A stretch of DNA of 64,000 nucleotides, from NCBI GenBank assembly GCA_004123355.1, contig SCHM01000002.1, positions 11,443,569 through 11,507,568 of the forward strand. The letters are read 5' to 3'. A program made the translations under genes and the position numbers. The notes beneath the pieces are model-generated. The model had not been told where the DNA came from. It searched no databases and worked only from the letters and a program-made list of their open reading frames with translations. Shown one piece after another: positions 44,127-58,948 of the stretch; within the stretch, counting starts at the first letter, position 1; every line of letters begins with the position of its first letter. The DNA is from Amphirosellinia nigrospora. Taxonomy: Eukaryota; Ascomycota; Sordariomycetes; Xylariales; Xylariaceae.

Positions 44127-45364
44127 ATGGCTACTAGCATAGAAAACAAGACGTGGCTTGGCCCGGCGGGCTCGGCAGCCTATGACTTGCGCAGTGAGTT
44201 CTAGTTTTATGTGAATATTTGCCCCTCTCACGATGTCATATCTAAAACGCATAAGGCGACACGATGACGACGCCGACGGCGGCCATGCTAGCCGCGATCG
44301 GATCATGTTCTCTACAAGACGACGTGATGCAAGAAGACGATACGACGAACGACCTCGAGGCCCACTGCGCCGCGCTCACGGGCAAGGAATCCGGCCTGTT
44401 CGTCCTGTCCGGCACGATGGGAAACCAGCTGGCGCTGCGGGCTCTGCTCACGCAGCCCCCGCACGCCGTGCTCTGCGACCACCGCGCGCACATCGTCACC
44501 AGCGAGGCCGGCGGCATCGCCATCCTCACGAGCGCCATGGTGAGCCCCGTGGTCCCGCGGAACGGGCTCTACCTGACGCTGGCGGACGTCGAGGAGAATT
44601 TCAAGCCCGAGGGCCGGATCGTCGCCTGTCCCACGCGCGTGATCAGCCTCGAGAACACCCTCTTCGGCGTCGTCACGCCGCTCGAGGAGGTCCGCAAGAT
44701 CGCCGCCTTTGCGCGAGAGCGGGGTGTCAAGATGCATTGCGACGGCGCCCGGCTGTGGGAGGCCGTCGCGGCCGGCGGGGGTAGCCTGACCGACTACGCG
44801 GCGTGTTTCGACACGATTAGTCTGTGCTTCTCGAAAGGTCTGGGCGCGCCGGTGGGGAGCATCCTCGTCGGCGATAGCGCGACGCTAAGCATCGCGCGAC
44901 ATGTCCGGAAGGCGATCGGCGGCGGACTCCGACAACCGGGTCTCATCACGGCCGCGGCGCGCGTCGCCGTCGACGAGACGTTTGGAAAGGGGCCGAATGG
45001 AGAAGGGGGGCTGCTCAAGCACTCACACACCACCGCCAAGAGGATAGAGGCGATGTGGAGAGCGCTCGGGGGCACAACGAAGGTTCCCGTCGATACGAAC
45101 ATTGTCTGGCTTGATTTGAAAGCGGCGGGTATATCGATGGCGCGATTTAATGAGATTGGGAAAGAGGAAGGGCTCAGATTAATGGGAGAAAGACTTGTTG
45201 CTCATTATCAGATTTACCAGAATGCCGAGGCCGCTCTTGGTAGGTTACAGAAGGTATTTGATAGATCATGGGCAGAGCGGGGAAATACCGTTCCAACGGG
45301 GCAGATGCGAAAGCTTCAATTTATTGAGAGAACATCTTTGAAGGCGTTTGACGTACATGGCTAG
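44127..45364 (+). CDS. Threonine aldolase (PLP-dependent, low-specificity type)
   Basis: Exons 44127-44193 and 44256-45364 with a 62-nt intron; 391 residues, no frame break. The first exon reads MATSIENKTWLGPAGSAAYD and the splice restores the conserved AYDLRSDTMTTPTAAMLAAI. Further landmarks are VLCDHRAHI (the HxH strand), CPTRVISLENTLFG, KMHCDGARLWEA (PLP-binding Asp and Arg), and SLCFSKGLGAPVGSI with the Schiff-base Lys. The enzyme splits threonine or allo-threonine into glycine and acetaldehyde in the cytosol. The C-terminal third (after WRALGGTTKVPV) is GC-poorer than the rest but clearly part of the fold. Strong third-position GC bias fits an expressed gene. Confidence 0.93.
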
Positions 45365-45686: not shown

Positions 45687-46919
45687 TTAAAGCTTCGCCA
45701 ACTCATCACATACTTCAATGAGCTTCGCGGTTGTACCAGGTTCCTGAAATAATTAGCGACTTTGTAACGATTACGAACATGGTGCTTCTACTTACACCCG
45801 CAGAGTGGCCAGCATCGTCAATCCAATGTAGTGAAGACTTGGGCCATGCCTTATGCACTTCCCACGCAGTCACAGGCGTGCAGAGCACATCATAACGCCC
45901 CTGAACGATAGCACCTAGAGAGAAGCGTCAGTTTATTGTCATGTTTCTTCGAGGCTTTGCAGAAAACTCACCTGGGATATCTTTGATCTTGGCCATATTG
46001 GCAGGGAACAAGAGTTGGCCATCCTCCAGCCAAGCATGATTCTGGTCAAGGAAGTGCGATTCAAATAGGGCGTGCGTGATACACCACTCGGGGTCATCCA
46101 ATTTCGCCATCAGTTCGGCATCCGGCCGCAGCGTCCCGATAGACATGTCCCACCGATTCCACGCGCGAGCCGCGGCGAAGGAAGTCTCGGGGTCTTTGGA
46201 GGTGATCCGTGGTACGAGTTATAGAGATCCTTTCGCTCGTCCTCGGGCAGGAAGTCGCGAAACGCCTCCCACTCCTGCGGGAAGAACAGGGCGGCCGGGG
46301 GAAACCCGTCCTTGAGCTCCATCTCGGACCTGCGCACCGTGAAGACGCCGCGGATCACCAGCGACCCGACCCGCTCGGGATGCGCCTGCGCATAGAACAA
46401 GCCTAGCGTGCTGCCCCAGGACCCGCCGAAGACCATGTGCCACTTGGTGATGCCCAGGTGTTCGCGTAGACGCTCGATGTCGTCGGAGAGGTGCTGCGTG
46501 TCGTTGTTTCGGAGCTCGTTCCGAGGACGGGATTTCCCCGCGCCCCGCTGATCCAACAGCACTACTCGGTAGACTGCTGGGTTGAAAAACTTGGCATTTC
46601 CCGGGCTAGTGTTGCCGCCGGGTCCGCCGTGTAAGAAAATCACTGCGTTCGGATCAGTAGGTGTTGCGGCTTCATTTGTCCAAGAGTCTGACATACCGGG
46701 AAGTCCATCTTTCTTTCCGTACTGTTCGTAGTATATCTCATGAATGGAATCGACCCTCAGATGGGTGGATTCCCACGCCGCTTCATGGGCATACCCGGTG
46801 ACGGCTTGCGGGAAGCTTGTTGCGACATCTTGTGGAGAAGCAGAGTACAGAAGTTTTAGTTGTTGAAAACAAGATAACTTCTTGGCTTTCTTGGCTAGAC
46901 AGGAGTAGGTATACTCCAA
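45687..46919 (-). CDS. Proline iminopeptidase (alpha/beta hydrolase, S33)
   Basis: Three exons, 46919-45972, 45914-45796 and 45743-45687 (stop TAA), about 374 residues. Family landmarks: IYYEQYGKKDG, NAVIFLHGGPGGNTSP (oxyanion HGGPG), VVLLDQRGAGKSRPR (the DQRGxGxS signature), nucleophile MVFGGSWGSTLGLF, then the cap domain, catalytic Asp in QGRYDVLCTP and His in DDAGHSAG. The enzyme releases N-terminal proline from peptides. A one-base deficit at a CC run near 46207 (YNSYH / ITSKDPETSF) is the only defect. The start at 46919 is uncertain because the first 40 residues are poorly conserved; a start close to 46830 is possible. The triad is complete, so I judge the gene real. Confidence 0.87.
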
Positions 46920-47839
46920 TACTTGAGTAATTAAAGGGACGGTGCTTCACGCTTTGGGGATTTCAACTTCATGGGTGAGTGAGTCATTATGTGGAGTCGA
47001 GATTTACGTGATATATGCTAAGTATGATAGGACCTTCCTAAATGGATGTCATTGGACAGACCGGTATGATTCACTACCTAGTACAAGAACGCAAGAATTC
47101 TTTTTGCAAAGTGAGGAGGCAGTTTGGGCTACCGTTCCCCATTCTCGAAAAGATCGGGTGTAGTCCGATGCGAACCGCGGCGACTCCGCCGAACTACGGC
47201 TGCATGTGCCCGGGATTGGGTTATATGTAGCCGAGCTCATAGAAAATGAGCAATGTGGAAGCATGAGATCATTAGACCGAAGGGTTCTCTTCAATAATAA
47301 TACTATACGTCATCCACATCGGGAAGCCCAAATCGGAAAGCCTGTTACGAAGCTAACACTTATACACCGTTCACATTCATGTTAGCATCTTGACGATGAG
47401 CTCTTCAACTAAATATTGACAGCTCCGTCATTTTGGTATTATAAATGAAAATTGTCCGGCATATTTCCGATAGTCAACAGACACGCAGCTACGTAGAGAC
47501 GAAAGAGCCCGATATTTCTTTACGTTCTCATAACGAGTTCACTAAAATAATGCAAATCATGTTGAGTAAAAAAAAAAAAAAAATAGACTAGACACATAGA
47601 AAGAGATGCACGATGATCTAGCTTTGATTTCCTAGGCCGTTCTAGACCTATCGTATTGCCCTCTCATCCCTCTTCGTTTCTCCGTTCCCTTGCTCGTGTG
47701 AGCGGTTCCACTCGGCGGCCCTGCTGCCATCAATACCGGCACCCTTCCGGCACGTAACGCGGAGTTTAACCGCCTCTGATTCGTCTAACTTGATGCCCCC
47801 CGTGGCTTATTTAGTTATCTCATGCAGTATTAACTGTAA
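46920..47839. other. Intergenic, no gene seen
   Basis: About 900 bases with an A15 run near 47570 and short random frames. Includes the iminopeptidase promoter. Confidence 0.4.
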
Positions 47840-48506: not shown

Positions 48507-48600
48507 GGCGTGATGGCCGAGTGGTTAAGGCGACAGACTTAAGATTTATCTGAGTCTTCTGTTGGGGAGACCCGCGCGAGTTCGAACCTCGCTCACGTCA
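48507..48600 (+). tRNA. tRNA-Leu (anticodon UAA) with an intron
   Basis: 94 bases. The acceptor arm GGCGTGA pairs with TCACGTC (one G-U pair) plus discriminator A. D-arm GCC...GGC; anticodon arm ACAGA-CTTAAG...TCTGT with an intron of about 13 nt after position 37. The long variable arm (GGGGAGACCC) marks a class II tRNA, and the T-arm is GCGAG-TTCGAAC-CTCGC. The loop CTTAAG gives anticodon TAA, that is UAA, leucine. A T6 run just after the gene (about 48609) fits Pol III termination. All arms pair, so the gene looks functional. Confidence 0.9.
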
Positions 48601-49263
48601 TAATTTTAACTTTTTTACACTTGCACTGCTACACCTACAGTGGAGACTGATCATGGTGTGGTACCGCTGCCCTGGCCACCGTTCCTACATAATAAATTGA
48701 GCTTAAATTAACCTCAAGATTAGTTATGGCCTCCTAATTGTTAGTGTTTTCTATGTATCTCATGCGAGGATAATCAGATACGCATATTTGGATGTTGATG
48801 AAATTATTGCTTAGAATGGTGCGGGACAACAGCGTGCAGCCGAGCGTATTGGCTTTTTCAGAAAAGTTCGTTAATTGCCTACTCGACAGTTTTTATTTTC
48901 CAAAAAGCCTTTCGATTCGTATTAATTAACTCCTAGTAAGCGAAGTAAACTAAGGGTCTGAATTACTGCTGGTAGGAGGAACTTACGACCCGGTTATACG
49001 GCGAGCCAATCAACACTTTAGGAACTACACATTTCCGCTGTCACCTTTGCCGCAGGATTTTTTCTTTCTCTTTTGAACATCACGCTCCTTAAATAAACCA
49101 CGATGATGATGGATTTAAATATGGCGAAAACCCAGCTTAAAGATCACGGCTGGGCATCATAAATTCAATTTTCTCGGAAAAAGAAGCATCATTGGTACTT
49201 AGTCGTCTCTAGAAAGCTAAAGACGACGCCGAAGCTCGTGGCGGAAATGCTCACAATCTGCTC
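48601..49263. other. AT-rich flank of tRNA-Leu
   Basis: 660 bases with no gene; A/T-rich with a TTTTCTTTCTCTTTT tract near 49060. Confidence 0.4.
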
Positions 49264-49870
49264 TTGGACACCAACGCCCAAAAAGTGCGTGTTTTCTTCC
49301 TGGTGGAAACCGATCAAGTCTTACGAGATCTAATCTCACATCCGACCGCAATCAAAATAGGTAGTAGTGTGCTCGGAGACGACTTCGTGATCAGCACCTT
49401 CGCTGCCAATATTGCGCGGCACAGTTCTCAGAGCATGACTCTTCATCCGGGCTAGAGTCTCGTGTTTCCTAAAACATGGCACGATGTTTGGGCTATTAAT
49501 GTTATCTGGTGCTTCAGCGATGCAACTAAAGAAAATGGGACGACGATGTATATCCCAGGATCACATCATTGGTCTACGAGGGATCAAGTGCCAGAAAATG
49601 CACCAGCACTGCTTGTGCCATTCGAAGCTAGTGCAGGCGATATGATCTTGATGGACGGCCGGATAAGGCACATCTCAGGTAGCAACATCACAAGCGATCG
49701 AGACCGGGCGCTCTTATTTGGCTACTACACGAAGTCTTTCATCCGACAACAGGTCAGCTGGACCGCGAAGTTGAGCTAGGAGTTACAAAAGATCTTGAGT
49801 TCAGAACTACAAAATGGCTTAGGCCAGATGTTATCGCCAATGCGGATGTGATTGGGGACTGGAGATACAT
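49264..49870 (+). pseudogene. Phytanoyl-CoA dioxygenase family (PhyH) relic
   Basis: Sequence-level match to the Fe(II)/2-oxoglutarate dioxygenases of the PhyH type: KIGSSVLGDDFVISTFAANI, FPKTWHDVWAINVIWCFSDA, TKENGTTMYIPGSHHW, AGDMILMDGRIRHISGSNIT, ALLFGYYTKSFIRQQVSW. These are the segments that surround the metal site and the second His. The frame is interrupted about twice within the conserved region, and the usual upstream end of the family is not recognisable, so the copy is broken. Such enzymes often tailor fungal secondary metabolites, which fits the polyketide synthase relic 1.2 kb downstream. Family assignment is from motifs only. Confidence 0.65.
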
Positions 49871-51063
49871 GGCAAGCAGTACCCGGACTTTGCACCGAAA
49901 AACTACTACGGCGAAGTATAATGAGCAAGTTATGGTGGAAGTGAAGGCTGGAAGCTGTATCTCTATTTATCTAGAACCGGTCAATACATTTATTATTAGA
50001 GTACCTGTTTACACCGTCATCAAGTCCGCTTTGGGTGGCGTGAGACTCAATTGTTAAGTGATGGGACGGGGGGATGGCAAAATAAAACGATGGCCAGCGA
50101 GGGAATCGAACCCCCTGACCTAATTATGCAGAGTAAATAGACAGCCAGCTTCTCAGGCCTCCAAATAGGTATCAGTGTAAAGAGATACCTACCCACCTAG
50201 CGAATAGACAGGTAGGCAAGGTAGGTATTATGTGGACGTGCTTAATGATCTTGACATGTAACTCAGTATCCAGGTACATAGGTATATAGCACATAGATCC
50301 AGACCAATATTGATTTGTGTAAAAGAAAATAAGAGGCATTGCACAGGAAAAAAAAAACTTGGGGGGCACTCGAAGTGCTGAGGGTCCAGGAACTGCAGCC
50401 ACCTTTCCCTTATGCCGGACCTGATACCCGGCATGTCCGTTGCACCCTAACATCTGGCCATGCACATAACTTACAGGCACTAACACCATTGAGCCACGGA
50501 AGGGTACCAAATAAGCTCAATGGCTGTTCCTTGGGACGTTGGAAACTAGCACCTTTTTTAAATATATAAGGCTCCAATAATAGCCCCACCTGTCATAGAG
50601 CCACAATATCCAAGCCGCGGTATTCCAAAGCCACAATGCCACAGGACAAGCCAATATCATAGGGTCCCTGACACGACCTATTGACTGTTGCCCCAGCACA
50701 CCGAGTATTATATCATTCGTAAAGGTGAAATCATGGCATAATTGATTCTGTGTAATTTATTGTTGAATCACTTGGAAAGGTCTCTTTCACCAAATATTTA
50801 TTAACCCCTCTCTTTTTGGACAACAAATACATCAGTCATCACAAGCAGAAAAAGTCAAGTATAAGACCTGTTTTAAATGACATGATTATAGTTTCTTCAA
50901 ACGATTTGACTAGTCTTGTTACTTGATTTAAGCCAACTATCAAGCCGAATAAGTCGAATAACCTTAACAGCTACTCCAACAGTTATCTCAGTAGCTATGC
51001 TACTCTATATCTCAGCAGTTTAGTGCACAGATCTCAAGGCCAGAAGGAGGTGCAAAAGAAGCC
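49871..51063. other. Gene-free gap between the two relics
   Basis: No intact gene; a TAGGTAGGTATT / CTACCCACC cluster lies at 50185-50230. The tRNA-like piece is listed separately. No missing polyketide synthase domains are visible. Confidence 0.45.
50093..50165 (-). other. tRNA-like 3' half (probable tRNA relic)
   Basis: Minus strand: T-arm GGGGG-TTCGATT-CCCTC followed by GCTGGCC-A. The supposed 5' acceptor (GGCCTGA, near 50163) pairs only in part and the D-arm is missing, so it is at best a decayed tRNA or a tRNA-derived piece. Confidence 0.3.
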
Positions 51064-52180
51064 ATGACAACCATCAAGGTCAAAATCGCGGCTAGTACTG
51101 CGCTGTCACCGGGGGAACTGTATCAATGCGAAGTTGTATTATTATTACGCTCTGGGCTAACATACGAGAAGTCAAAAGTTTTGTTAAAATCTTTAGCTGA
51201 TCTCGAGGTTCGGGTTACCACTCCTCTCTGTGATGTAACAAAGATGACATCACTACAGAGAGCTCTAAAAAAAAGCTGCAGAGTCCATGCTTCCAGTTAG
51301 AGGTTGCATTCAGGGGTCGATGGTCCTGAAGGTTTGTCTCCAAATACGCGCACCCATTTTAAAGTAAGTACTGCTAACTCGACCAATCTCGAGATCGAAT
51401 GCTCCGAAACATGACTCTCGACGAATACCGGCAAGTGCTCGAGCCAAAAGTCGACGGAACTTGGAATCTCCATAAGGCACTGCTAGAAGGCATGGACCTC
51501 GTCATACTGGGCATGATCGGGTCTAGTGGACAATCCCATTACAACGCCGCCTCGACATTCCAAGACGCTTTCTCCAGATATCGGTGGTCGCAAGGCGAGA
51601 AATGCGTCTCGCTCGACGTCGGAGTGGTGACCGGCGTCGGCTACGCCGCCGAGAACACCCATATCGTAGAGAAATGGGGCAGCAAGGGCCTGCAGGTCAT
51701 CAGAGAGCAGGAGCTGCACAGCGCCCTCGGCTGGGCCTGCAACGCCTCTCTTGCATTTTGGTCGCCATGGCCAACACAGATCATTACTGCTGTGGGCGGG
51801 TCGACAAACAGCCCAGATTCGCTCCCTCACTTCCCAGAACACGAAGAGGTGTCGCAGGCCATACGAAGCGCCTGAAAAAATTCAATTTCGGTGCCCTGAT
51901 ACGGGAGGCGAAAGATACAGACGGGGCTCGCGGGATCATTGCCTCTGCCCTAGCCACAAGGCTCTCACAAGCCCTGTCCATCCCGTTGGAAGACCTCGAA
52001 CTCACCCGGCCCGCCCATTCGTACGGCGTAGACTCCCTCGTAGCGGTTGAGTTACGGTTCTGGCTTGGCAAGGAGATGGGCGCAGATGTTTCAGTCTTTG
52101 GTATACTATCAACGCAAACCATCGACTCTCTTAGCGGATTGGCCGCTAGCAAGAGCAAATATATCGTGTCGTCGTCTTAG
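51064..52180 (+). pseudogene. 3' end of a highly reducing polyketide synthase (KR-ACP relic)
   Basis: Only the last two domains remain. The ketoreductase part shows LLLRSGLTYEKSKVLLKSLA, LEVRVTTPLCDV, PVRGCIQGSMVLK, NMTLDEYRQVLEPKVDGTWN, GQSHYNAASTFQDAFSRY and GEKCVSLDVGVVTGVGY. The acyl-carrier part shows SIPLEDLELTRPAHSYGVDS with the phosphopantetheine Ser, then LVAVELRFWLGKEMG. This is the usual KR-ACP end of fungal highly reducing type I synthases that normally span more than 6 kb. The KS, AT, DH, MT and upstream parts are absent and the remaining part has about three to four breaks, so it is a truncated fossil. Neighbours point to a lost metabolite cluster. Confidence 0.7.
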
Positions 52181-52420
52181 GTGTCTAGGTACACGGGAAC
52201 GATGAGTGCAAGCTTCTCAATGGGTAAGCAGAATCTGCTCTACTCCTGAGGGAACACATCTCAGAAAGACAGCAAGACGCGCTCTTCGAACATTACAAGA
52301 CGATTCACCCTCAATTTAACCAGCTTTTTTATTTCTGACAGGTTATTGACCATATTCCGTTACAGCGAACCAATCGCCCAAAGCCTTATTATGCAATACA
52401 ATTAAATCCAGCGCACAGTC

Positions 52421-53458
52421 TCACGCAATCTTGTACACCAACTTCTCGGCCCGAACTTTTCCTTGTTGCTGTAGCTCGAAACCCTCAGCAATCGCCTCAA
52501 GCCCGCCTAGCTCTTTTGATGGATTTGGCTTGACCTTCCCCGACTCGACATACTCAGGTAGCAGGCTCAGGTACTTCTCCCAGACCTTGCGGTCCTGCGG
52601 CGTCGGCCCGCCCCAGTTACCAAACGGCGAGTTGCCCATTTCCAGCGCGTCTCCGAAAACAGTGTACACAATCGTCGACTCAACCTTGACCTTCGAGATA
52701 TCCTCTGGCAGCTCGGCAGTTGTGCGGGGCAGAATGCAGATCACATGTCCGCCTTTCGTGGGCGATATCGCTCGCGCCACAGCAGCCGTCGTCTCCTTCT
52801 CCGCTATGCAATCAAACGCATGCTGCAGGTTATCATGCGACAACTCGCGAACTTTCTCCGGCCACGCCGGGTCCTTGTAATCTACCACGGCATCGGCACC
52901 TAGCGCCGTAAGGAGGTCATGGTTCTGCTTCGACGCAGTGGCAATGACATATAAGCCCGCGAGCTTGGCAAGCTGGACGGCATACAGGCCGACCGAGCTG
53001 GTCCCGCCATTAATCAGCACTGGGAATGCCGAGGTGGCCGGCTTGCTCGGCTCCGGCAGGCCGAGGCGCTGGAACATGGCCTGCACGGCCGTTGCGAAGG
53101 CAAGACTGAAAGTCGACGCGTCCCTCAGAGACACCGAGTCCGGCACCGCCCACACGAAAGAGGACCCCGTGACCAGGTACTCGGCATAGGCGCCGCGCAA
53201 CGGCCCGTCCATGGTGCCGTACACGAAGCCGGCGACGCGCTGCCCCTCGCGCCAGTGCGAGCCGTTGGCCTCGGCCACGGTGCCGGCGAAGTCGCATCCC
53301 ACGATGCGCCCTGCGGGTCGGTGCGGCACGGCCTTCCAGTCTGTCGGGTTCTGCGCCGCGTAGTGCACGCGCACGAGGATCTCGCCCTCGGAGGGTGTTG
53401 GTTTGGGAATTTCCTTGACGGCAGCTGTGCGCCCCTCGACTGTGACGAAAGCCTTCAT
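52421..53458 (-). CDS. Zinc-free MDR oxidoreductase, trans-enoyl-reductase (LovC/ToxD) type
   Basis: An uninterrupted 345-residue single-exon frame from ATG 53458 (MKAFVTVEGRTAAVKEIPKP) to the TGA at 52421. Typical landmarks of the ToxD/LovC group of medium-chain reductases are VHYAAQNPTDWKAVPH, GCDFAGTVAEANGSHWREGQ, RVAGFVYGT, the NADPH-binding GGTSSVGLYAVQLAKLAG and GALEAIAEGF-like end (GGLEAIAEGFELQQQGKVRA). No zinc-ligating cysteines of alcohol dehydrogenase are visible. The enzymes of this group either act with a polyketide synthase in trans to reduce enoyl groups or are quinone-reductase-like. The frame is open 58 codons further up (53632) with an Arg-rich start, which could be a mitochondrial leader but lies in the 5' region. 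Its intact state contrasts with the synthase relic beside it. Confidence 0.87.
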   Translation of the reverse strand: MKAFVTVEGRTAAVKEIPKPTPSEGEILVRVHYAAQNPTDWKAVPHRPAGRIVGCDFAGTVAEANGSHWREGQRVAGFVYGTMDGPLRGAYAEYLVTGSSFVWAVPDSVSLRDASTFSLAFATAVQAMFQRLGLPEPSKPATSAFPVLINGGTSSVGLYAVQLAKLAGLYVIATASKQNHDLLTALGADAVVDYKDPAWPEKVRELSHDNLQHAFDCIAEKETTAAVARAISPTKGGHVICILPRTTAELPEDISKVKVESTIVYTVFGDALEMGNSPFGNWGGPTPQDRKVWEKYLSLLPEYVESGKVKPNPSKELGGLEAIAEGFELQQQGKVRAEKLVYKIA

Positions 53459-54418
53459 CTTGCTGATTGGTGATGCGGTGTTGATGAAAGTGAGATGAGT
53501 TGTGATGTGAGATGTCGGTTGGCGAACGGCGTGTAGATGATGATTCAAGAATGCAGGGCCTCTTGAAAGTGAAGTGCGCGGCCTCAGCACCGTCTTGGTG
53601 AGGTGGGCGATGGAGGGAGTCTTATATCTCATGATGACGTAATGGATGCACTCGAATCAGGTACCTTGTCCTACATGATCGCTTATAAATGAATGGATAT
53701 ATGGTCGTATGTCCCAACCTTAGGTATCAAGATCCTCTGTCGTGAGCGCGTCTATGGTCTGGGGGTTATCAATATCCCGCTGTATTACCATAACCTAAGC
53801 GTTTCCTATCGAAAAGGATGCCAAGAACTATCCAATTCTGGAATTACCGTTTTGGGCGATTTATAATCCTGCTTATGTCAACCCGGGGCGGGAAAAGAAC
53901 TTGTTAGCGCTAAAACAGTTCCCTAAACGCCGATGAAGGAATTAGAACACGGGAAAATATCAACTGAAAAGAGGGCGTTCGGTTTTAAGCCGCATTTGTG
54001 ATGGTTTTTGTGTCTTGCGGATGCGCGAAGTCGATTGTCTTCAGTTAGATTGTCACGATTGGTATTCTTCACCAGAGGCAAAGCTCCTAGGTTGGGGGTC
54101 ATATATATACCTAGGTAAGTATACTGACAGCCGAGTACACGTCGCCGCCACAATCACTAGCAAACCACCGCGTGCGGGGTCACAGGTGGCATACATACAA
54201 TAATGAACTCCATCTACACCCTTAGCTTCGGGTGATGTGCATAGTCGATTCGTCGTTCCCCTATCGGCGCAACTTGATGGCCAAACCCGGAAGGTCGCAT
54301 CATAATTTTCTTGATCGGGTTTGGCGGCCGTCCCCTCTCCCGTTCCGCATCCATCGGAGATAAAGTAGTTCATGGCCTATATCTCTCAACACCAAAGCGC
54401 AAGCAGCGACAGGAGTGC
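53459..54418. other. Divergent promoter region of the reductase and bicupin genes
   Basis: 960 bases with no supported gene between two outward-pointing starts, so both may share regulation. A CCTAGGTAAGTATAC run lies near 54108-54122. Confidence 0.4.
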
Positions 54419-55611
54419 ATGATGAAGATCGAGCTGGCCGAGATCCTGCTCCCGTCTAAGGGCATCGCCGAAGATGTTGAGTTCTGGACGTCCGCCACCC
54501 AGGGCTTGGGCTTCCGCATGGACCAGATCTACCCGGCCGATGACCCGCAGGTGGTCACGCTGACCGGGCATGGTTTACGGGTGCGTCTCGACAAGTCGGC
54601 CACCAGTATAGGTCCTGGGACGGTCCGCCTATTATGCAGCGGTCCCGACTCGCAGTTCGAGGCGCGCGAGCTAACCTCGCCGTCAGGCACGCGAGTCGAG
54701 CTCGTCTCTGCCGAGACGCCCATGTTGCAGCCACCCACCGAGCACGCCTTCATTGTCCGCCGGTTGAAGGACAACGCGCCGTGGGTCGTGGGTCGCGCGG
54801 GCATGCACTACCGTGACCTGATTCCCGGCCGCCTCGGAGGCGCCATCATCGCCTCGCACATTCGTATCCCCGACGCCGGACCCGTGCCAGACAATGTACA
54901 CTATCACACCGTCGGCTTCCAGCTCATCCACTGCCATGCCGGCTGGGTGCGTCTCGTGTACGAGGACCAAGGAGAGCCATTTATCCTGCGGGCAGGCGAC
55001 TCCGTCATCCAGCCGCCGCAGATCCGACACCGCGTCCTTGAGTCCTCGGCAGGTCTTGAGGTCGTCGAGGTTGGCGTGCCCGCTGAACACCTCACTACCC
55101 TCGACCACGCGATGGAGTTGCCGACGCCGCACTACCGCCCGGACCGCGAGTGGGATGGCCAGAAATTTGTACGTAGTCGGCTGGAAGACGCCGTCTGGGG
55201 GCCTTGGCGCGTACCAGGCTTTGAAGCTCGTGACACCGGCGTCGAGGAGAACACCAAGGGTGTTGCTGCTGTGCGCGTGGTCCGCCCTGCTGCCGGAGAG
55301 GAGCAAGCAGTGCCTATGACGAGCCATGACTCAGACATCTTGTTTACCTGTAAGTTCACCGCGAAGATAGTGCGAATTGATATTCTTGTAGCTAACATAC
55401 CTTAACTCATCCAGTTGTTCTATCTGGCTCATGCACACTATACGGAGAGGGTCAAGGTTCCAAGGACTTGAGCGAGGGAGACGCCTACACCCTGCCGCCC
55501 GGTCACAAGACTTGTCTGACTGGCTGCTCTGCCGATCTAAATCTACTGGAGGTTTCGCTGCCTGGTCGTTTCAATACAACAATACATCATGAGGATAAGT
55601 TACCTATTTAG
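54419..55611 (+). CDS. VOC-like plus bicupin protein
   Basis: Exons 54419-55349 and 55415-55611 (65-nt intron) give 375 residues without a frame break. Three parts can be seen. The first 75 residues look like a VOC/glyoxalase fold (IELAEILLPSKGIAEDVEFW, GLGFRMDQIYPADDPQVV, LTGHGLRVRLDKS). Residues about 150-240 are a cupin with the metal motif PDNVHYHTVGFQLIHCHAGW, VRLVYEDQGE, AGDSVIQPPQIRHRV. A second cupin spans the intron (FVLSGSCTLYGEG, LSEGDAYTLPPGHKTCL) but lacks clear His ligands. Cupins of this type catalyse isomerase, decarboxylase or dioxygenase chemistry; the exact reaction is unknown. It starts 1 kb from the reductase, diverging from it. An upstream in-frame ATG (54311) is less likely. 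I recall similar fungal proteins only as cupin-domain proteins. Confidence 0.8.
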
Positions 55612-57266
55612 TTCAGCTGTCAACTGTCAACTGCTCACGCGAGTCCTTGGCTACTATACTGTCTAGGCATGCTTGAGCCCTCTTTTACCCTTACCGCTGC
55701 CCTCTCGTCTCCTAGCCAGTAGTGACATGGAGGCGGGAAAAGGATCTATGATAGGTCACGAGATCGTCCAATGTCGGTAGATACTTAGCCGAGAATCTGA
55801 AGTGCATTATTTAGCGCCTCTTTTCTCCAGCGAATAGCCAATACAAAAAATTTTTTTTGGCTCACTATGCTTTGAGCTCTCACCTACGCACTTGTGCCAC
55901 CCTGTCTCAACAGGCTTTGATAGCTATAATGTGACTACGACGAGCTCAATTTTTATCATTTAGGCTACCATCATCTCGCGCCCGGCGATGATGCGTGTCA
56001 TGCTGGGGTTATCAGTGCCAATATGAATATTGAGGAAGCAGTCCTCTTGGTTCTACGTTTTAGCCCGCATAGTAACTAGGAAGCCAGCTTGCTGTTCAAG
56101 TGCGATTCTTTCCCCCCTTTTTATTTATTAATTTAACATCTTCGTCCTGTGACACAAATCTGGCATATAAGACTGTAGTAGCGGATCCCAGAACCTCCAG
56201 TTCTAGAGGCTTTCACAGCATGTTGGTGCTTCGCCAAACCCAGCGAATGTCATAATAGAAGTGGGTTATTGAGAAAGATTGAGCTTAAGACCATCACGCC
56301 ATTGAGAGAGCTAGACAAGAAATACATCAGTTAAGACACTTATAAGAGATCAGTTTAAGGAAGTATGATCATTTTCATCTAAATCTAGACGGCCGGTTTA
56401 CTCTTAATTACAAACAAAATGTCGACCTGTGTCGGAGTATTCTTGCTCGCTATAATGCTGAAATTGCTCCGGTGAGTAGGCAAGGACTACGACTAATTCA
56501 TTCTTTGTTAATTCTAACAGCACGTGAATTCCAAGGCTACCATGGCTACATCAACGGAGGATTGCTACCCGGGTATATCCCGAGCTGGTGGCTAGGCTGT
56601 CATATTTAGGGCGACGCCGATACAATAAGCTATCCGGAGTTTTATCCGTAAGTCATTGTTTCTAATTATACTACCATCTATGACACAGTACTGCCGCGAC
56701 CCAATCCAATGTTATTGTTTATAATACATCGTTCTAGTAAGCTGCGGATCCCGGCTAACACTGACACGAAAACTCTGCAGATGCTGATTGTTATGGCGTT
56801 TAATGGATCTGACATTATTGTGATCATTATTGCCCGTCGGCGAAGAGTCTTGAGAGCAGCGAAGAGGCGACTATGTGCTGCGGATCAATTGAAATAATCA
56901 CTAGATTTTATAAATGTAATTATCCCTCTGATGTGTTCAGCTTTTATGCCCCTTTTTCATTTTCTTCTTTCTCCTGACATCTCTGACATCTAGTGTTAGC
57001 AGTGATTGATGTTAAGAGGCCCACGGTGCACAAGCCACACATTAAGAGACACCAAGGAAATGCCCCTCATAACCCCTCTATTTACCAACTAGCCCCTGTG
57101 TGGGGCCCTGCTCAAACAACTGCCCCTCCGGTAAGCTAGCCTGCGCCGCCTGCGCCGCCTGCACCTTGAGTCACTCTCACTTTGAGTCACTCAGGAACCC
57201 GTTTCCCATAAAGGAGGCTCAGAACACCGTCCCGTCCCAATTCGATCCGCAGTCCACTCATATACG
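55612..57266. other. Mostly gene-free stretch before tyrS
   Basis: 1.65 kb. A possible dead scrap lies at 56419-56655: MSTCVGVFLLAIMLKLLR, then after a GT-AG gap REFQGYHGYINGGLLPGYIP and GDADTISYPEFYP, not joined in one frame; family not recognised. The last 100 bases are the tyrS promoter. Confidence 0.4.
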
Positions 57267-58948
57267 ATGGCTGCCACAAAATCCACAGGCGAGCGACTCG
57301 CCTTGATCACAGAGGGCCTCGCCGAGGTCCTCAACCCTGAAATCCTCGAGAAGATCCTCGATGAGGGCCGGAACCCGAGAATCTACTGGGGTAAGCAACC
57401 ATGTTTCCCCCCGTTGGTGTCGGGCGCAACACGAATTCCTTGCTAACTAATGATGTTTCGCTACTATAGGTACTGCGACTGTATGCGATATCTCCCTGTT
57501 GCCAATGCTTGTGGTTGCGACACAAAACGAAAAGATGGGCAGTCAGCGGCTAACTGGAGCGCACCACAGACGGGTCGACCGCATTGCGGATATCTAGTTC
57601 CAGGCGTAGGATTCTCCCGTTATCTCTCCGTCCGGACATGAAGCTCACCATTCACCATTCGAGGACAGGTTAAGATGGCCCAATTGCTGGCTGCCGGCTG
57701 CGATCTAGTCGTCCTCCTCGCCGATGTATGTGCTACTCCACGTCCCCATACACACATTCTCATACATCGAAGTATGCGCGCCGCGATCACCACTGATCAT
57801 CTTAGATCCACGGTTATCTCGATAACCTCAAAGCACCCATCGAACTAGTGGCGCACCGAGTCCAGTATTACAAGTTTGCCATCACAGCATTGCTCGCCGC
57901 CTGTGGCGTATCGACCGAAAAAGTCGAGTTTGTGCTTGGCAGTTCTTACCAAGAGAGCTCCAAGTATGTCAGGGACCTTTACAAGATGAGCACGCTAGTC
58001 TCGGAGCATGGGGCGAAGCGAGCTGGCGCCGAGATCGTCAAGCAGTCCGACGACGGTCCTTTGAGTGGATTGCTCTACCCGCTTTTGCAAGTGTTGGACG
58101 AACAATACCTAGATGTGGATGCGCAATTCGGAGGTAAGGGCGCCTGTACCTGGCTTTTAAGACCGAAAGTTGAGACGCACCACTGATGCATTACAGGGCT
58201 TGATCAGCGAAAGTTGTTCATTGCTGCGAAGGCCTGGCTCCCAAAACTAGGTTACCGCGAGGTAAGTTGGATGCGATTGGGCTAGTCCAAGCTCCCGGGT
58301 TGCGACTGACTCACCCATAGCGCGCCCACTTGATGAATCCCATGATCCCAGGTCTTCACGGCGGAAAAAGTGAGTGCAAAGTCCTACCCCTGTAGAGATT
58401 CCGAACATACTGTGGTCTGGTTGTCGCTGACTCTTATTCTCACAGTGAGTTCCAGTGACGAAAACTCCAAATTGACCTCTTAGACCAACGTCGTTGCCAC
58501 AAAGATTAAGAAAGCAGAGGCAGTGCCAAAAGTTGCTGAAGGCAATGGTCTACTGGCCTACGTAGAATTTGTGTTCCTACCTGTCTCCGAGCTGAAAGGA
58601 AAGCGTGAATTTATCGTACTTCGGGAGCGAGATGGTTTAGAGCCACTCGTGTACACGACAATTGCCCAGATGCGGAGCGATTATGAAAACGACGTGCTCA
58701 CACCACAGCTTCTAAAACCCGCTGTCACCAAGGCATTAACGGACATTCTCTCGTCAGTCCAAGACGCTTACAACGCGTCGAAAGAATGGCAGGAGGTCAC
58801 ATTGCTAGCCTACCCGCCACCAGAGAAGCCGAAGAAGAAGGTTAAAAAGCTTGGCACACGCTACCAAGGGCCTGGCGCAGAAGGAAAGGCAGGTGAAAAG
58901 ACAGACGCGAGTGCAGAGAGTATAGCCAAGCTTAACCTTGAAAATTAG
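57267..58948 (+). CDS. Cytosolic tyrosyl-tRNA synthetase
   Basis: Eight exons: 57267-57390, 57470-57480, 57570-57605, 57669-57725, 57806-58133, 58197-58261, 58321-58369 and 58446-58948; about 391 residues (yeast Tys1 is 394). The second exon is only 11 nt (GTACTGCGACT). The class I signatures are clear: WGTATTGRPHCGYLVP (the HIGH-like PHCGY), LLADIHGYLDNLKAPIELV, VEFVLGSSYQESS, KRAGAEIVKQSDDGPLSGLL, LDEQYLDVDAQFGG and GLHGGKMSSSDENSK (KMSSS). The C-terminal half (EGNGLLAYVEFVFLPVSELK, VYTTIAQMRSDYENDVLTPQ) is the eukaryotic appended helical domain. The reading frame fails after DENSK near 58469 and again near 58485, bases being short in an A run and in a CC run. As this gene is essential, I take it as a sequencing or assembly fault. 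Confidence 0.88.

What the first reader, a model, noticed from the sequence alone, without database searches (positions are those of the whole stretch)
49264..55611. Decayed polyketide cluster with two surviving genes
A PhyH dioxygenase relic and the KR-ACP end of a highly reducing polyketide synthase lie next to an intact LovC/ToxD-type enoyl reductase and an intact VOC-bicupin gene. Trans-acting enoyl reductases usually sit beside such a synthase. The synthase is truncated, the rest of its domains being absent from the preceding kilobase, while the neighbours are clean. Either the cluster died recently and the survivors have found another role, or the reductase and bicupin belong to another pathway.
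Basis: partly seen in the sequence, partly recalled or inferred. Interest (0 to 1): 0.7.

Follow-up and report, generated by a model that had tools for sequence, protein, structure and literature searches.

The report
Dead polyketide remnants beside unrelated live genes
A fungus carries broken leftovers of two natural-product genes next to two healthy genes, but the healthy ones look like members of other pathways (one belongs to an enzyme family seen here in bacteria) rather than survivors of the dead cluster.

Summary
A PhyH dioxygenase fragment and the KR-ACP tail of a highly reducing polyketide synthase lie beside an intact reductase and an intact two-exon VOC-bicupin gene. No other synthase domain was found in the window. 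The reading that the reductase is the synthase's surviving trans-acting partner is not supported. In this genome, 5 reductases that group with LovC each sit beside a synthase in which no built-in reductase was detected; the window's reductase falls outside that group. The relic's three nearest kin carry built-in reductases. Support is moderate: placing the reductase with the LovC group is not rejected (AU p 0.106), and the relic's tree is weakly resolved. The bicupin is 55-59% identical to alphaproteobacterial proteins, and keeps 130 of 142 of their invariant residues and an H-H-Q-H metal site. Some of those bacterial genes lie beside kynureninase-like, tryptophan-dioxygenase or cyclase-family genes. 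Most likely this is an ordinary dead cluster remnant next to two genes of other pathways; the bicupin may be an old transfer from bacteria. No fungal genome but this one could be searched, so neither the age of the decay nor the transfer is settled.

The parts
49213..50057 (+). PhyH-family dioxygenase fragment; the recognised part is within 49456-49776, an in-frame stop stands at 49453-49455, the outer limits are by eye
   Evidence: nearest solved relatives are mostly fungal secondary-metabolite dioxygenases
50074..50598 (.). dispersed repeats between the two relics (50074-50137; 50152-50308; 50310-50598), 80-95% identical to copies elsewhere in the genome
51130..52180 (+). highly reducing PKS relic: end of KR, then ACP; two frame changes without room for an intron (near 51.28 and 51.85 kb); a third gap (51332 to about 51389) falls where the kin L034 has an intron; no other domain found in the window
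52421..53458 (-). intact MDR-family reductase (enoyl-reductase-like), 345 aa, single exon; tail to tail with the relic, 240 bp apart
54422..55614 (+). intact VOC-bicupin gene, two exons (intron 55350-55414), 374 aa; divergent from the reductase, 963 bp between start codons
48507..48600 (+). tRNA-Leu(TAA), left border gene
57186..58948 (+). tyrosine-tRNA ligase, right border gene (57806-58183 matched to PF00579 and, below its cut-off, NF006330; the outer pieces were assigned by eye and had no family match)

Best explanation
The stretch holds the last remains of dead biosynthetic genes: a fragment of a PhyH tailoring dioxygenase and the tail of a highly reducing PKS that probably had its own built-in enoyl reductase. 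The synthase lost everything upstream of its KR, its tail has frame breaks, and dispersed repeats lie between the two relics. Next to them stand two intact genes that were probably not its partners: a reductase of the MDR family that probably works on a small free substrate, and a VOC-bicupin, a mononuclear-metal enzyme of a family found in alphaproteobacteria that may act in breakdown of aromatic amino-acid-like compounds. Shown: the anatomy, the decay of the synthase, the reductase's place outside the LovC group, the bicupin's bacterial kin and conserved metal-ligand-like residues. Inferred: that the PhyH and PKS relics came from one cluster, that the lost synthase had a built-in reductase, the substrates of both live enzymes, and a bacterial origin of the bicupin.
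For: Reductase: a tree of 17 rows puts LovC and 5 synthase-adjacent paralogues together at 96/99 and leaves the window's reductase outside; of the 15 paralogues in that tree, 5 of 5 in the LovC group and 1 of 10 outside it lie within 15 kb of a KS (Fisher p 0.002). Synthase: 0 of 5 synthases beside LovC-group reductases show a built-in ER upstream of KR, against 13 of 16 other KR loci held (p 0.003); the relic's three nearest rows all have one and lie across a 94/89 branch from four of the five trans-ER synthases (the fifth was not in the tree). Bicupin: 55-59% identity in each of the 15 confirmed loci; 130 of 142 invariant columns kept; H160, H162, Q167, H203 identical in 33 of 33 relatives; sister to 19 bacterial rows with 13 others and an outgroup outside, 97/100. 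Neighbours: kynureninase or kynureninase-like in 3 of 15 loci, tryptophan dioxygenase in 1 of them; a cyclase-family gene in L062 and L080 by Pfam and in L081 and L083 by similarity to L080. Border genes are tRNA-Leu and tyrosine-tRNA ligase, so no larger cluster is evident.
Against: A tree with the reductase joined to the LovC group is not rejected (AU p 0.106), nor one with L013 and L017 added as well (p 0.279). Eight of 23 paralogues were not in the tree. The relic's place rests on 119 columns, with most inner branches unstarred and L037 filling a quarter of the columns; 21 KR loci of about 40 in the genome were examined. LovC is still the reductase's best solved relative. One synthase-adjacent reductase (L018) is outside the LovC group, and its synthase has a built-in ER, so a non-LovC reductase could be an accessory cluster enzyme. 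10 of 15 bacterial bicupins lie beside nucleoside-salvage-like genes, not kynurenine genes (names read by eye).
Confidence: 0.68

Rival explanations
1. The reductase, and perhaps the bicupin, were accessory enzymes of the dead cluster (tailoring, not trans-acting reduction on the synthase) and survive by neutral lag or a new role.
For: 240 bp from the relic; synthase-adjacent reductases exceed chance, 7 of 23 against 0.77; L018 is a non-LovC reductase beside a synthase with its own ER.
Against: No polyketide gene was recognised beside the bicupin's relatives in the neighbours that were scanned (most neighbours were not scanned); the reductase's nearest rows L013 and L017 lie 179 and 837 kb from a KS; both genes are uninterrupted while the presumed partners are wrecked, and their GC3 (0.75, 0.70) is in the range of live neighbours (0.60-0.89).
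Confidence: 0.22
2. The reductase is a true LovC-type trans-acting ER and the relic its lost synthase.
For: Adjacency; LovC best solved hit; AU test does not exclude it.
Against: Outside the LovC group at 96/99; relic's nearest kin carry a built-in ER.
Confidence: 0.07
3. The relics are live genes broken by assembly errors or read wrongly because of introns.
For: A neighbouring prolyl aminopeptidase also has one frame break; one of the three gaps in the KR-ACP stretch falls at an intron site of the kin L034; the stop before the PhyH piece could in principle lie in an intron.
Against: Two frame changes leave no room for an intron; KS, AT, DH, MT and ER are missing from the window; no upstream PhyH part was found; no N in the window.
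Confidence: 0.03

Closest known systems
LovC / FSL5-type trans-acting enoyl reductases
   Same: MDR family, LovC best solved relative
   Different: outside the LovC group on the tree; the neighbouring relic's nearest kin are not of the ER-less kind. The pairing of such reductases with synthases whose ER is inactive is described in PMC6274466 (abstract and passages seen)
Truncated and pseudogenised PKS genes of fungi
   Same: same kind of relic; two truncated and five pseudogenised key genes are reported for Cladosporium fulvum in PMC3510045 (passages seen)
   Different: nothing essential
Alphaproteobacterial VOC-bicupin family (no NCBIfam match)
   Same: 55-59% identity, 130 of 142 invariant columns
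   Different: fungal copy has an intron and forms its own branch
Bicupins of known structure: oxalate decarboxylase, salicylate 1,2-dioxygenase, quercetinase
   Same: two-cupin fold in the model
   Different: about 15% identity, TM about 0.45, extra VOC domain; the model is of middling quality (pLDDT 71.7)

Membership tests
LovC-type trans-acting enoyl reductase | MDR reductase related to LovC | tested here: met
LovC-type trans-acting enoyl reductase | falls inside the LovC group | tested here: not met
   LovC group 96/99 without it; joining it as sister not rejected, p 0.106
LovC-type trans-acting enoyl reductase | partner synthase without a working built-in ER | tested here: inconclusive
   the relic lacks that part; its nearest kin have a built-in ER
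LovC-type trans-acting enoyl reductase | reduces enoyl chains on a synthase | not testable with these tools
   needs expression
Highly reducing fungal PKS | KR then C-terminal ACP | tested here: met
   PF08659, PF23297
Highly reducing fungal PKS | KS, AT and DH present | tested here: not met
   not found in the window with pieces of two own-genome synthases as queries
VOC-bicupin family | two cupins with conserved metal ligands | tested here: met
   Pfam cupins; H160, H162, Q167, H203 identical in 33 of 33; that such residues bind metal is recalled cupin knowledge
VOC-bicupin family | N-terminal VOC domain | tested here: met
   tested on the bacterial relative L055, not on the fungal protein: model pLDDT 88.5, best matches FosA, TioX and glyoxalases, E 1e-5 to 4e-4

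The most novel reading that the evidence does not exclude
A fungus took from alphaproteobacteria an uncharacterised VOC-bicupin enzyme that opens or otherwise breaks down a kynurenine-like aromatic compound, gave it an intron, and now uses it with a divergently transcribed reductase as a small catabolic pair that settled in the ruins of a dead polyketide cluster.
Probability: 0.2. Interest if true: 0.5.

Novelty: new member of a known kind. Interest (0 to 1): 0.27.

Why it matters
It warns against calling a reductase a cluster survivor because it touches a synthase relic, and shows an in-genome test: LovC-group membership went with synthase adjacency and with a missing built-in ER. The bicupin has no NCBIfam match, and two paper searches for cupin or bicupin together with kynureninase found nothing, so it is a reasonable target for assigning a new catabolic activity.

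Tried and rejected
RIP as the cause of decay: indices in both relics are unremarkable. A second copy of the lost synthase: the strongest own-genome matches to the KR piece are 37-48% identical in protein, and DNA matches outside the locus are to the repeats, plus one 75% match over about 90 bases in the gap between relic and reductase. Rfam found only the tRNA in 47.0-56.5 kb. Solved structures for the bicupin: one short cupin (2o8q, E 2.7e-16), the other ten at E 0.05 or worse. The full-length bicupin fold search gave generic bicupins in the rows shown, with bicupin seed proteins among them. Paper searches: no paper with all four cluster terms, none with bicupin plus kynureninase, none with four of five related terms; some searches returned lists in which titles and abstract starts showed nothing on this gene pair. 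Comparison with related fungi: not possible, no relatives of this genome are held.

Full report
What is there. The window lies at C4:11443569-11507568 of a 48.1 Mb fungal genome in 11 contigs, about 262 kb from one end of the contig. Between a tRNA-Leu gene (48507-48600) and a tyrosine-tRNA ligase gene (about 57.2-58.9 kb; its middle piece is matched, the outer pieces are read by eye) there are, left to right, a PhyH fragment, repeats, a PKS relic, an intact reductase on the minus strand and an intact bicupin gene on the plus strand.

The relics. The PhyH piece 49456-49776 matches PF05721 at E 7.1e-15, profile positions 126-209 of 213. Its best solved relatives are dioxygenases mostly of fungal secondary metabolism (NvfE E 1.1e-8, then DhiD, PrhA, EasH). 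An in-frame TAG stands before it, and the three plus-strand frames of the 850 bp upstream give no PhyH match. The synthase relic runs from 51130 to 52180. Matching pieces change frame twice with no room for an intron (pieces 51130-51291 and 51278-51337 overlap; pieces ending 51857 and beginning 51836 overlap); a third gap starts at 51332, where the kin locus L034 has a GTAAG splice site. A gap of about five residues in most KR alignments falls near what I recall as the catalytic serine. Pieces of 17 own-genome synthase loci (16 distinct) matched nothing else of a synthase in 44-60 kb except ER domains against the neighbouring reductase and reverse-strand echoes; pieces of two large synthase loci gave the same over the whole window. 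RIP indices are unremarkable. Dispersed repeats sit between the relics (50074-50598). I read this as real decay; I cannot date it.

Is the reductase the synthase's partner? I merged the reductase-like matches into 26 places; leaving out the window's own and two that are ER domains inside synthases, 7 of 23 lie within 15 kb of a KS, against 0.77 expected (P 7e-6). So the rule holds in general. A tree of the window's reductase, LovC and 15 of those 23 paralogues puts LovC together with 5 of the 6 synthase-adjacent ones in the tree (96/99) and leaves the window's gene outside, with L013 and L017 as its nearest rows by path; these lie 179 and 837 kb from a KS. The seventh synthase-adjacent place, C1:8433505, was not in the tree. 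Holding the window's gene with the LovC group costs 7.8 log units and is not rejected (p 0.106); with L013 and L017 added, p 0.279. An earlier tree from shorter rows also kept it out of the LovC group, 99/98.

Second test: of 21 KR loci examined, out of about 40 in the genome, the five synthases beside LovC-group reductases show no built-in ER by tblastn, while 13 of the other 16 do (p 0.003). One of the five, L089, shows MT, KR, ACP and condensation domains and no ADH-type domain by Pfam, as I would expect of a LovB- or hybrid-type synthase (recalled). On a KR tree of 21 rows and 119 columns (20 own-genome loci and the relic; L089 fell out because the query did not align its KR) the relic's nearest rows, L037, L034 and L052, all have a built-in ER, and four trans-ER synthases with L007 lie on the far side of a branch at 94/89; most other branches are weak, and L037 fills only a quarter of the columns. 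Together these make a trans-acting partnership unlikely, not impossible. That trans-acting ERs serve synthases with an inactive ER is stated in PMC6274466 (abstract and passages seen).

The bicupin. The one genome-contig scan (close relatives only, by exact peptide words) confirmed 15 loci out of 26 stretches, all alphaproteobacteria by record title except one named only as Pseudomonadota. The best-segment identity is 55-59%, covering at least 355 of the 374 residues. On a 34-row tree the fungal protein is sister to 19 bacterial rows, 97/100, with 13 other bacterial rows and a distant outgroup outside, so it is nested in the bacterial family as sampled; other classes and other fungi were not sampled. 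It keeps 130 of 142 columns invariant in the 15. H160, H162, Q167 and H203 are the same in 33 of 33 relatives, which I read as the metal site of the first cupin; the second cupin lacks an equivalent HxH by eye. The N-terminal domain of the bacterial relative folds as a VOC domain (pLDDT 88.5; FosA, TioX, glyoxalases at E 1e-5 to 4e-4); Pfam did not see it in either protein.

What the bicupin may do. In 3 of 15 loci a kynureninase or kynureninase-like gene lies beside or near it (L054, L055, L062). L055 passes the kynureninase cut-off and also has tryptophan 2,3-dioxygenase (E 1.7e-125) directly upstream of the bicupin; L054 and L062 are far below the kynureninase cut-off. L062's gene is joined to a cyclase-family domain, and L080 has a separate cyclase gene, with similar genes in L081 and L083. 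Against this, 10 of 15 lie beside what I read by eye as cytidine deaminase, thymidine phosphorylase and phosphopentomutase genes, which may be mere position. A metal-dependent step in aromatic amino-acid breakdown is my best guess, weakly held.

Conclusion. The stretch is an ordinary cluster relic beside two genes of other pathways. The bicupin is the more interesting piece.

Noticed in passing
45931-46946 (-): A prolyl aminopeptidase gene is split into two frames whose pieces match adjoining parts of TIGR01249 (profile 26-175 and 176-252, each below the family cut-off), so one frame break in an otherwise normal-looking gene, real or a sequencing slip.
   Followed up: partly
L054-L068, L070-L087: A bacterial VOC-bicupin family; the two members scanned (fungal and L055) have no NCBIfam match. 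Kynureninase-like, tryptophan dioxygenase or cyclase-family neighbours in some members, nucleoside-salvage-like neighbours in others.
   Followed up: partly
50074-50598: Composite of dispersed repeats with copies on C1, C4 and C5; one stretch looks like a tRNA T-arm by eye, though Rfam does not call it.
   Followed up: partly
C4:11618450-11624900 and C4:11651104-11651927 of G000: Further KR/KS matches about 110 and 140 kb beyond the window towards the contig end.
   Followed up: no
44255-45364 (+): Intact-looking beta-eliminating lyase gene, PF01212 E 1.2e-76.
   Followed up: no
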